A stretch of 8,099 nucleotides of DNA from a bacterium (GTDB lineage: Bacteria; Patescibacteria; Paceibacteria; UBA9973). The stretch covers positions 1 through 8,099 of the forward strand of contig JAKALG010000034.1 in the NCBI GenBank assembly GCA_021813235.1, in the 5' to 3' direction. Under the pieces are notes generated by a model that was not told where the DNA came from, ran no database searches, and saw only the letters and a list, made by a program, of their open reading frames with translations. Both the position numbers and the translations under genes were made by a program. Numbering within the stretch: position 1 is the first letter of the stretch; each line of letters begins with the position of its first letter. Below are positions 1,101 through 3,151 of the stretch, piece after piece.

Positions 1101-1547
1101 ATGAAGGTTATTTTTTTACAAGATGTTCCTAGGGTGGGCAAAAAATACGACATAAAAGAAGTAAATGACGGTTATGCTGTAAATTTTTTATTTCCTAAAA
1201 AGCTCGCGACTCTTGCGACACCGAAAGCCGTAGCTGAACTTGAAAGACATAAAAAAGAAATCATTATTGAAAGGGAAGTGCAAGAAGATCTTTTAATGAA
1301 AAATTTAGAAGAAATAAAAGGCAAGACCATCACTATAGGGGCTAAAGCTGATGAAAAAGGTCATCTTTTTTCTGCTATTCATGCAAAAATGCTTAGCGAG
1401 GCTATGGAAAAGCAATGTCATGTACAAATAGATGAGAAATTTATTGATCTAGAAAAACAAATAAAAGAAATAGGGGAGTTTGAAATTCCGATTCTCATAA
1501 AAAATAAAAAATCTTCATTTAAGCTTATTGTGGAGAAAATAAAATAA
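1101..1547 (+). CDS. rplI: 50S ribosomal protein bL9
   Basis: Large-subunit protein that binds 23S rRNA near the base of the L1 stalk and helps maintain reading frame. The 148-aa length is normal. The N-terminal domain is typical ([36 protein letters not shown]). A long connecting helix (about residues 41-75) leads to the C-terminal domain ([17 protein letters not shown]). The start is fixed by the conserved MKVIFL end and there is no Shine-Dalgarno. TATAAT sits only 3 nt before the ATG, too close to be an ordinary promoter for this start. bL9 is known to be missing from several CPR lineages, so its presence helps place the organism. It ends in a strong hairpin terminator that begins inside the stop codon. 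Confidence 0.97.
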
Positions 1548-1581
1548 GAACTAGCATAAAATTTATATACTAGTTCTTTTT
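1546..1581. terminator. Bidirectional terminator shared by rplI and the 91-aa gene
   Basis: Perfect 9-bp stem AAGAACTAG (1546-1554) / CTAGTTCTT (1570-1578) around a 15-nt AT-rich loop. On the plus strand it is followed by TTT and overlaps the rplI stop codon. On the minus strand it is followed by ATTTTATTTT just after the stop codon of the convergent 91-aa gene. It probably serves both directions. Confidence 0.85.
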
Positions 1582-2299: not shown

Positions 2300-2680
2300 A
2301 TGGAAAAAATCAAGCTATTTATTGAAAGCGACAAAGGCAAAGACATATTGGTAATAATAATCATTATTTTGGTCGGTTTAGGCTCATTTGAGCTAGGTAG
2401 ACTATCAAAAGAAACGAGTTCAGGCCTTAAAATCGAATATAATGGACAAGAAGCTAATGCCATAGGTACTGTAGACCAAAATTTAGCCATTTTGCCTCAA
2501 AATTCAGATAATTCTCAAAAATCAATTTCCGGAAGTTTTTTTGCTTCAAATCGGGGGAGTAAATATTATTCCATAAGTTGTGGCGCTGGAAAAACTATTA
2601 AAGAAGAAAATAGAATTTACTTCAAAACATCTGGGGAAGCGGAAAAAGCCGGCTACGCACTCTCTAGCTCATGTAAATAG
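2300..2680 (+). CDS. Single-pass membrane protein with Ada-like C-terminal domain, 126 aa
   Basis: A short charged N-terminus (MEKIKLFIESDKGKD) precedes one very hydrophobic span at about residues 16-32. A linker follows, then a C-terminal module at about 80-125. That module (NRGSKYYSISC, GAGKTIKEENRIYF, SGEAEKAGYAL, SSSC) resembles the small Cys-containing domain related to the Ada metal-binding fold that is tethered to membranes in many Parcubacteria. Only two cysteines are present (94 and 125), against four zinc ligands in Ada itself, so metal binding is uncertain and a disulfide is possible. The domain probably faces outward, given the positive N-terminus. The gene is divergent from rpmA and ends in TAG just before a dense hairpin array. 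The Ada-like link is from memory of the pattern; function is unknown. Confidence 0.85.
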   Translation: MEKIKLFIESDKGKDILVIIIIILVGLGSFELGRLSKETSSGLKIEYNGQEANAIGTVDQNLAILPQNSDNSQKSISGSFFASNRGSKYYSISCGAGKTIKEENRIYFKTSGEAEKAGYALSSSCK

Positions 2681-2682
2681 AA

Positions 2683-2824
2683 TGGGATATTGTATGTCCC
2701 AAAGTGGATTTTGCGACATAATATAATGTGCGCAAAATCCACGCTATGTTTTAGAACGTGCAACGTCCCAAAACATATATTGTGCGACACGATACTATTT
2801 TAAATATATAGCCTAAAAGGCTAT
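2683..2824. repeat. Array of five adjacent hairpins in a convergent intergenic gap
   Basis: Five inverted repeats lie almost end to end. H1: TGGGATAT/ATGTCCCA, loop TGT (2683-2701). H2: perfect 12-bp GTGGATTTTGCG/CGCAAAATCCAC with an inner ACAT/ATGT and one extra G (2704-2742). H3: TATGTTTT...AAAACATA enclosing a G-C pair and ACGT/ACGT, loop GCA, with two A-C mismatches (2745-2777). H4: TATTGTG/CACGATA, loop CGA (2778-2794). H5: ATAGCCT/AGGCTAT, loop AAA (2808-2824). Gaps between neighbours are 2, 2, 0 and 13 nt. H1-H4 pair about 88 of 112 nt. None of H1-H4 is followed by a clear T-tract on either strand, so they are not ordinary terminators. No protein-coding gene is visible in the gap. Confidence 0.85.
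2808..2824 (-). terminator. Possible terminator of the 107-aa gene (hairpin H5)
   Basis: Perfect 7-bp stem with a 3-nt loop, 3 nt after the TAG stop of the 107-aa minus-strand gene. On the minus strand it is followed by an AT-rich stretch (ATATTTAAAATAG) rather than a clean T-tract, so termination efficiency is doubtful. Confidence 0.45.
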
Positions 2825-2827
2825 TCC

Positions 2828-3151
2828 CTACGGTTTAGGTAAGGCTGGAGAGCTCAACTCATAGTCAGTAGGTTTTCCATCTCTGATGCGCTCCATATTA
2901 TTTATAAAAGATTTCCAAAAAATATTTATAAAAACATCATTCCAAAGATAGGATGCAGGCTCTTTCAAATACTTGTCCCAAATGCTTACCGTCCCTCCCC
3001 CGACATAGTGTATATTGTCTTGTGCTTCAGGACTTTCTACTACAGATCGCACACTTACTTTAAAATAACTCAAAACTAAAATTAAAATAACTCCTAAAAG
3101 TAAAATACCGACGATGCTTATCCCTTTGTTTTCTCTATAAAGATTCATCAT
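2828..3151 (-). CDS. Small membrane-anchored hypothetical protein, 107 aa
   Basis: A basic N-terminus (MMNLYRENKG) is followed by one strongly hydrophobic span at about residues 11-30 (ISIVGILLLGVILILVLSYF) and then a polar region of about 75 residues. That region contains aromatic and charged patches (YVGGGTVSIWDKYLKEPASY, LWNDVFINIFWKSFINNMER) and ends in a Pro-rich tail. I recognise the pattern as a recurring uncharacterised Parcubacteria protein but know no function. KG|ISIVG resembles a prepilin cleavage site but lacks the usual Glu at +5. The start has two ATGs (3151, 3148) and only a weak AGCAGG 10 nt upstream, inside a hairpin. It lies 30 nt after the 45-aa gene and ends in TAG. The sequence around SYFKVSVRSVV resembles part of that upstream protein. 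Confidence 0.82.
   Translation of the reverse strand: MMNLYRENKGISIVGILLLGVILILVLSYFKVSVRSVVESPEAQDNIHYVGGGTVSIWDKYLKEPASYLWNDVFINIFWKSFINNMERIRDGKPTDYELSSPALPKP

What the first reader, a model, noticed from the sequence alone, without database searches (positions are those of the whole stretch)
2683..2824. Five hairpins packed end to end in a convergent gap
H1 to H4 lie 0-2 nt apart and put about 88 of 112 nt into stems (8, 12+4, 13 and 7 pairs), with H5 shortly after. Terminators need one stem and a T-tract; here only H5 is placed like one, and the other convergent junction in this window (1546-1581) uses a single 9-bp stem. Such dense structure suggests a structured RNA, a protein-binding DNA element, or a remnant of a mobile palindromic repeat. 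Wobble pairs in H1 and H4 favour a plus-strand RNA, whereas the two A-C mismatches in H3 would be G-U pairs on the minus strand, so the strand is not settled.
Basis: partly seen in the sequence, partly recalled or inferred. Interest (0 to 1): 0.75.

Follow-up and report, generated by a model that had tools for sequence, protein, structure and literature searches.

The report
Chromosome-terminus dif site with hairpin array
The packed hairpins look like the site where this tiny bacterium's recombination enzyme separates linked chromosomes after copying, followed by two extra, worn copies of that site in alternating direction that relatives seem to gain or lose repeatedly.

Summary
The hairpins are real, but they are neither an RNA gene nor a terminator cluster. 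Read on the minus strand, 2693-2790 holds a 28-bp dif site (GTGTCGCACAA-TATATG-TTTTGGGACGT), then an inverted dif-like copy with an 11-nt centre, then a third copy with a 5-nt centre. H3 and H2 are the inverted repeats between neighbouring copies. The dif call rests on relatives: a core found in 186 of 397 genomes, never more than once; position within 1 kb of the cumulative GC-skew maximum on two contigs and about 20 kb on an 859-kb contig; one Xer recombinase in 7 of 10 genomes, FtsK-gamma in 10 of 10; half-sites upstream of xer. The array covaries strongly, needs 16 changes among 65 labelled tree rows with no clustering, and also lies upstream of xer in 5 of 147 genomes. Its centre lengths match those printed for CTXphi attP1/attP2. 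I favour insertion of a folded, gene-less Xer substrate into dif; fold-back copying is the main rival. H1 and H4 are minor folds; H5 is an ordinary terminator. The searches made found no description of dif in Patescibacteria.

The parts
2780..2790 (-). dif left arm (C-arm) GTGTCGCACAA, Xer half-site
   Evidence: core in 65 of 80 relative loci; at most one exact copy per genome in 397; half-site repeated upstream of xer
2774..2779 (-). dif 6-nt centre TATATG (crossover region)
   Evidence: mostly TATATG, TATATC or TATACC in relatives
2763..2773 (-). dif right arm (D-arm) TTTTGGGACGT; common form in the order is TTTTGCGACAT
   Evidence: (I2), covariation, letters
2738..2748 (+). att2 centre, 11 nt (TCCACGCTATG) instead of 6
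   Evidence: 10-12 nt in the 13 aligned sites
2726..2737 (+). att2 left arm in inverted orientation, with one extra (bulged) base
   Evidence: (I3)
2704..2708 (-). att3 centre, 5 nt (TCCAC), complementary to part of the att2 centre
   Evidence: resembles the dif D-arm of the nearest relative L002, but so does the window's own dif D-arm (9 matches each)
   Evidence: outside the modelled pairs
   Evidence: position just after the stop at 2828; inference, not picked by the terminator scan
2300..2680 (+). flanking gene, Ada metal-binding-like protein; used to find relatives
   Evidence: PF02805 E 4.5e-5, 1009 homologues
2828..3151 (-). convergent flanking gene, weak Flp1-like N-terminus
   Evidence: PF16982 E 1.6e-4, below cut-off

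Best explanation
2693-2790 is the chromosome dimer resolution (dif) site of a Nomurabacteria-like patescibacterium, at its replication terminus. Shown by comparison with relatives: at most one exact dif core per genome, at the GC-skew switch, in genomes with usually one Xer recombinase and an FtsK with a gamma domain. Inferred: Xer binds both 11-bp arms of dif, cuts at the edges of TATATG and, switched on by FtsK, turns a dimer into two monomers. Behind dif lie two further dif-like copies in alternating orientation, with centres of 11 and 5 nt that should not recombine; this alternation makes the main hairpins. The likeliest origin (inferred, about 0.5) is insertion of a short, gene-less, single-stranded folded Xer substrate between the left arm of dif and its old right arm, by one Xer strand exchange, as CTXphi attP does. 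The extra arms probably still bind Xer and may damp or order recombination, or, upstream of xer, repress xer.
For: Core GTCGCACAATATATNTT: 186 of 397 genomes of the order, no row with more than one match, 0 for the reversed control (rows read by eye); up to 1 mismatch, 24 of 24 genomes of my loci, 19 with one match and 5 with two; near-full dif, up to 2 mismatches, once each in 116 of 197. Skew maximum against site: 114 kb against 113.8, 104 against 103.7, 533 against 512.6. PF00589: one match in 7 of 10 genomes, 0, 2 and 3 in the others; FtsK_gamma 10 of 10; closest solved structure XerD. Half-sites upstream of xer in 20 of 27 loci with a start. Covariation: 45 two-sided cells against 17.9 in shuffles, 0 of 500 as high, slid versions at most 12. 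All three left arms carry the same changed base in L469. 16 changes on the tree, shuffled mean 16.5. All 45 model hits lie at a dif core (40) or just upstream of xer (5). CTXphi: attP1 12-nt, attP2 5-7-nt centre, opposite orientation, one functional dif and two non-functional copies after integration.
Against: No recombination was assayed. No genome is held for the window, so its own Xer, FtsK and copy number are inferred. 211 of 397 order genomes lack the exact 17-mer and 81 of 197 the near-full site. No xer was found in 17 of 147 family genomes at E 1e-20, among them G003, G011, G012, G014 and G023, which have arrays; the assemblies may be incomplete. No version with cargo between att2 and att3 was seen; the nested pattern found 0 viral contigs, and the best of the viral loci scanned with the model scored 28 bits. 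The displaced-arm test is weak: 70 matches against 61.5 expected, reached by 1.5% of permutations, 9 hand-picked pairs; for the dif arm itself 66 against 63.5, 24%. The att3 centre and part of the att2 centre are complementary, which fold-back copying explains more simply. Low folding energy next to dif also occurs without an array (L060, L062; upstream of L073 and L003).
Confidence: 0.75

Rival explanations
1. Fold-back (template-switch) copying at the terminus: a stalled fork copied dif forward, backward and forward again, giving (C-D)(D'-C')(C-D); later hairpin-templated correction keeps the arms matched. No mobile element is involved.
For: Forward-inverted-forward order of one ~30-nt unit; upstream of xer the second hairpin extends into promoter-like sequence on its 3' side, as a local inverted copy would; scattered gains fit recurrent local mutation.
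Against: The att2 centre has a CG at the same place in 12 of 13 aligned sites that is not in the dif centre, and CATAGCGTGGA is shared by window, L040 and L050, which lie apart on the tree. A bulged base in the second hairpin recurs. Placement next to a C-arm at two different loci is not required by fold-back copying.
Confidence: 0.3
2. A functional accessory module of dif, ancestral and kept by selection, as extra Xer sites or a cruciform that controls recombination or xer expression, lost many times.
For: Strong covariation; arrays also upstream of xer, where 20 of 27 loci keep a half-site; arms follow a change of the host core (L469).
Against: 46 of 65 labelled sites lack it with no clustering on the tree, and 29 of the 30 order-level sites read lack it, so dif seems to work without it.
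Confidence: 0.25
3. Structured non-coding RNA transcribed from the convergent gap.
For: Low folding energy on both strands; covariation.
Against: No Rfam match; wobbles show no strand preference; hairpins are repeats of a likely recombinase half-site; orientation relative to the neighbour gene is not fixed.
Confidence: 0.03
4. A cluster of bidirectional terminators for the convergent genes.
For: Position between two stop codons; H5 sits right after the minus-strand stop.
Against: No T-tract follows the array's stems except one minus-strand terminator-like match at 2744-2730, which is a fragment of the array. Relatives with bare dif, such as L004 and L016, keep a convergent small gene like the window's without H2 and H3.
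Confidence: 0.02

Closest known systems
dif of single-recombinase Xer systems (difSL/XerS, difH/XerH, archaeal XerA, Legionella XerL)
   Same: two inverted 11-bp arms, 6-nt centre, one per chromosome near the skew switch, usually one Xer gene; in some relatives xer lies beside the site, as PMC5357621 says of XerS and XerH (passages seen)
   Different: different arm sequence (rTGTCGCACAA / TTTTGCGACAT); followed in some genomes by two degenerate copies; closest solved structures are XerD and XerA, XerH far weaker
CTXphi-type folded attP and its integrated state
   Same: two inverted dif-like sites beside a functional dif, centres of 12 and 5-7 nt (PMC3089051 and PMC4246890, passages seen); here 10-12 and, in 11 of 13 aligned sites, 5
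   Different: no phage genes between the copies, short loops instead of a ~90-bp spacer, apparently a single Xer instead of XerC/XerD; single-stranded form not shown
Integron attC site
   Same: hairpin with kept shape and variable sequence, one extrahelical base (attC features recalled, not from a call)
   Different: no GTTRRRY box in 2680-2800 (motif recalled), closest enzyme is not IntI, no cassette gene
IMEX elements and dif-mimic islands such as LME-1
   Same: L016 has a 7.5-kb insert between two direct dif copies; viral contigs carry dif-like sites
   Different: the window has no insert with genes; LME-1 known from the abstract of PMC9765430

Membership tests
dif / Xer chromosome dimer resolution | about 28 bp, two inverted 11-bp arms around a 6-nt centre | tested here: met
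   in the window the right arm is less alike to the left than in the common form
dif / Xer chromosome dimer resolution | one copy per chromosome | tested here: met
   in relatives: (up to 1 mismatch) has 5 of 24 genomes with two matches, of which only G006 (L016) has two exact ones, 7.5 kb apart; the window's own genome is not held
dif / Xer chromosome dimer resolution | at the GC-skew switch / replication terminus | tested here: met
   3 of 3 contigs tested; inside the window the cumulative maximum is at 1482 (78), 70 at 2750, -212 at the end, so the window alone is only roughly consistent
dif / Xer chromosome dimer resolution | cognate Xer recombinase and FtsK with gamma domain | tested here: met
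   in relatives; PF00589 was missing in 1 of 10 and xer in 17 of 147; not testable in the window's own genome
dif / Xer chromosome dimer resolution | Xer-dependent recombination at the site | not testable with these tools
   needs an assay
CTXphi-type integrated attP | two inverted dif-like sites with ~12 and 5-7 nt centres next to a functional dif | tested here: met
   10-12 nt, and 5 nt in 11 of 13 (4 and 6 in the others); arm limits set by eye
CTXphi-type integrated attP | phage genome between the copies | tested here: not met
   loops of 2-8 nt at SL2 in the 13 aligned sites, somewhat longer in others; 0 viral contigs with the nested form
CTXphi-type integrated attP | single-stranded folded substrate used by Xer | not testable with these tools
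   needs an assay
integron attC | GTTRRRY box at the crossover | tested here: not met
   0 in 2680-2800, both strands; motif recalled
integron attC | IntI-class integrase | tested here: inconclusive
   one relative's enzyme: XerD E 8.9e-41 against IntI4 8.1e-26; the IntI-specific insertion was judged by eye from recall only
known RNA family | Rfam covariance match | tested here: not met

The most novel reading that the evidence does not exclude
The ~70-nt two-hairpin block is a gene-less mobile DNA element: a folded single-stranded dif mimic that the host's lone Xer inserts next to a C-arm, both at dif and in the xer operator, replacing the working right half of dif each time. It would be an integron-attC-like, structure-recognised substrate of an ordinary Xer enzyme, and a living intermediate between dif, folded phage attP and integron attC.
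Probability: 0.35. Interest if true: 0.88.

Novelty: new variant of a known kind. Interest (0 to 1): 0.72.

Why it matters
It gives a terminus marker (dif, with its arms and recombinase) for a large group of mostly uncultured Patescibacteria, which allows orientation of contigs, replication-rate estimates and a search for Xer-using phages. It also offers a natural series of bare, extended and decayed dif sites on one tree, so the question of how double-stranded dif sites and folded single-stranded att sites (CTXphi attP, integron attC) are related becomes testable with one recombinase and short oligonucleotides.

Tried and rejected
Rejected: structured RNA; terminator cluster (and bare relatives). 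The viral scan for the nested form found nothing. Similarity search of the gap in phage records gave one chance-level match (E 7). Displaced-arm test: weak, 9 hand-picked pairs, two of them sharing one relative, and for L016 I took the second of its two sites. Tree: of 81 rows three were too short (L025, L056, L067); 13 of the 78 left had no label. That 'nosite' list was made by hand (no or poor core, contig end); it includes L021, L063 and L064, which have weaker variants of the core. Three decayed arrays were counted as extended, as was L069, which has SL1 but only one arm of SL2. R1 and A2 were built from 13 sequences chosen by me because they show both hairpins, so describes that set, not all dif sites. 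In one search, 3 of 30 xer loci gave no start (L329, L331, L333) and some starts chosen by the script are doubtful; 30 of the 130 genomes with a match had loci. The 30 sites are those of the 186 genomes that were given loci. Counts of rows were read by eye from the tables.

Papers: search listings; passages of PMC3089051, PMC3025954, PMC5357621 and PMC4246890; abstract and outline of PMC9765430. Searches joining Patescibacteria, CPR, Saccharibacteria or Parcubacteria with dif/Xer terms: 0 papers held all terms (at least 2 of 3 terms) gave 782 and (at least 2 of 4) gave 446, of which I saw 10 each; no listed title describes a patescibacterial dif. The library lacks most subscription papers and preprints.

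Full report
1. The observation. The window is a piece of a Nomurabacteria-like genome: its Ada-like gene is 99% identical to one on a contig of a Nomurabacteria MAG (L001). The gap between the convergent genes 2300-2680 and 2828-3151 folds far better than shuffles on both strands (z -6.2 and -9.1). The hairpins and coordinates are as described. The contig of L001 stops inside the hairpins, 54 nt after the gene's sense codons end.

2. What the relatives show. With an alignment of the flanking Ada-like protein I fetched 80 loci, the best of 95. 65 of the 80, and the window, hold the core TGTCGCACAATATAT (up to 2 mismatches and one of four inner strings). Of the 66 sites in those loci, 43 start within 150 nt of the end of that gene and 53 within 1200 nt. 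In more distant relatives the full site is a near-palindrome, rTGTCGCACAA-TATATC-TTTTGCGACAT, 11+6+11. In the window the site lies on the minus strand: left arm 2780-2790, centre 2774-2779, right arm 2763-2773.

3. Why it is dif. (a) Single copy: 186 of 397 genomes of the order hold the exact 17-mer, no row shows more than one, and the reversed control is zero throughout; with up to one mismatch all 24 genomes behind my loci have it, 19 once and 5 twice, of which only G006 has two exact copies; the near-full site is found once each in 116 of 197 genomes. (b) Position: on the 336-kb contig of the nearest relative with a long contig the cumulative GC skew peaks at 114 kb and the site is at 113.8 kb; on a second contig 104 against 103.7 kb; on an 859-kb contig 533 against 512.6 kb. 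Inside the window the cumulative skew has its maximum at 1482, is nearly as high at 2750, and then falls to the end. (c) Enzymes: 7 of 10 genomes have exactly one PF00589 match, one has none, one two and one three; a query Xer protein finds a match in 130 of 147 family genomes; FtsK_gamma is in 10 of 10. One relative's Xer is closest to XerD and XerA among solved structures. (d) Link between enzyme and site: a left-arm half-site, on either strand, lies upstream of xer, often against the -10-like box, in 20 of 27 loci with a start (L322 at -120 of a doubtful start; in L311 and L316 it overlaps the start and was not counted). In L020, L034 and L053 xer lies directly beside a variant site TTCGCACAATATATGTAAAGCGAA or close to it; in L054 about 70 nt away.

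4. The hairpins. In the minus-strand reading dif is followed by an inverted copy (att2: right arm, 11-nt centre, left arm with one extra base) and by a third, direct copy (att3: left arm, 5-nt centre, right arm). 15 of the 67 sites show both hairpins, L069 shows SL1 and one arm of SL2 (z from -11.1 to -4.0 for these 16, over the 100 nt after the left arm), and three more look decayed (L018, L027, L045; z -1.2 to -2.4). Two other sites with low energies (L060, L062) have unrelated hairpins, and a few upstream control stretches are low too (L073 -7.4, L003 -4.1) (L033 read). In an alignment of 13 such sites 85.6% of 389 cells pair, 18 of 30 pairs have two-sided changes, 45 cells in all against 17.9 in shuffles and at most 12 when slid. 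att2 centres are 10-12 nt; att3 centres 5 nt in 11 of 13 (4 in L046, 6 in L024). In several further sites the SL2 stem has lost much of its likeness to the arm yet remains a hairpin with an inner ACAT...ATGT-like motif (L285, L287, L295, L297). In L469 all three left arms carry the same changed base, GTCGGACAA.

5. Distribution. On a tree of 78 loci from six proteins, 19 extended and 46 bare sites need 16 changes, at least 15 forced by well-supported branches; shuffled labels give 16.5. The array is thus not clustered; the window's nearest labelled neighbour, L002, is bare. A covariance model of the array hits 41 of 147 genomes of the family at E 0.001, 45 hits in all (strict filters). By position and sequence 40 of the 45 are at a dif core (among them one that abuts xer, G532, and two overlapping hits in G010) and 5 are just upstream of xer (G016, G504, G010, G501, G487). 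11 weak hits that I fetched are bare or partial dif sites, so 41 is not the number of genomes with full arrays. At the order level 29 of 30 sites read lack the array; L178 has it. In G016, G504 and G010 the block upstream of xer lies between a C-arm and a second C-arm followed by the TATTTG-like and -10-like sequence that bare xer promoters also have.

6. How it may work. dif itself presumably resolves chromosome dimers with Xer and FtsK. For the array, the best parallel is the integrated state of CTXphi, for which the papers give attP1 with a 12-nt centre and attP2 with a 5-7-nt centre in opposite orientation, a single XerC strand exchange, and one functional dif plus two non-functional copies afterwards (PMC3089051, PMC4246890). 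The window has two inverted copies beside dif with nearly the same centre lengths, but no genes between them. If a folded substrate was inserted, the right arm of att3 should be the old host arm: it looks most like it in L046/L016 (12 of 14 letters against 9 for the dif arm), but the test over 9 pairs is weak and for the window itself the two arms tie. Fold-back copying would give the same order of arms and explains the complementary centres; it does not readily explain the CG in the att2 centre of 12 of 13 sites or CATAGCGTGGA shared between distant genomes. Which of these holds cannot be settled here.

7. Novelty. dif as such is a new member of a known kind; searches of the held library listed no paper on dif in this group (limits given under Tried and rejected). 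The recurrent folded array behind dif and before xer is a new variant; I recall no description, and one search listed none among the 10 titles shown of 18.

Noticed in passing
L466 207-2396 (-), L467 278-2470 (+): The Xer recombinase of two genomes (G019, G487) carries an intein-like insert with a LAGLIDADG domain, right after the HxIRHC motif (Pfam Intein_splicing E 4.8e-19 and 1.2e-16).
   Followed up: partly
L016 10454-17930: A 7.5-kb insert between two direct dif copies, with genes for Phage_rep_O-like, AbiEii-like, Fic and RadC domains and a tyrosine recombinase with one internal TGA next to the right copy: a likely dif-integrated mobile element.
   Followed up: partly
L082, L085, L086, L091, L092, L094, L098, L103, L110, L115: Some of the 39 IMG/VR viral contigs with the core carry near-palindromic dif-like sites (by eye). 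Of 10 proteins scanned from six of them (L082, L085, L086, L091, L094, L103) several match terminase, portal and head proteins, so tailed phages may use this kind of Xer.
   Followed up: partly
L020, L034, L053, L054: A second xer lineage lies beside a variant dif (TTCGCACAATATATGTAAAGCGAA-like), closely in the first three and about 70 nt away in L054; site and enzyme may have changed together.
   Followed up: partly
window 2780-2790 and relatives: dif is flipped relative to the flanking gene in some relatives (53 plus, 14 minus of 67 sites).
   Followed up: no
L001 6785-6839: The contig of the nearest relative ends inside the hairpin array, perhaps an assembly break caused by the palindromes.
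   Followed up: no
L004, L010, L027, L036, L038, L043: Extra DNA of 0.3-1.7 kb, with ORFs in those listed (L004, L010, L036, L038), lies between the flanking gene and dif, so the terminus gap may be an insertion hot spot.
   Followed up: no
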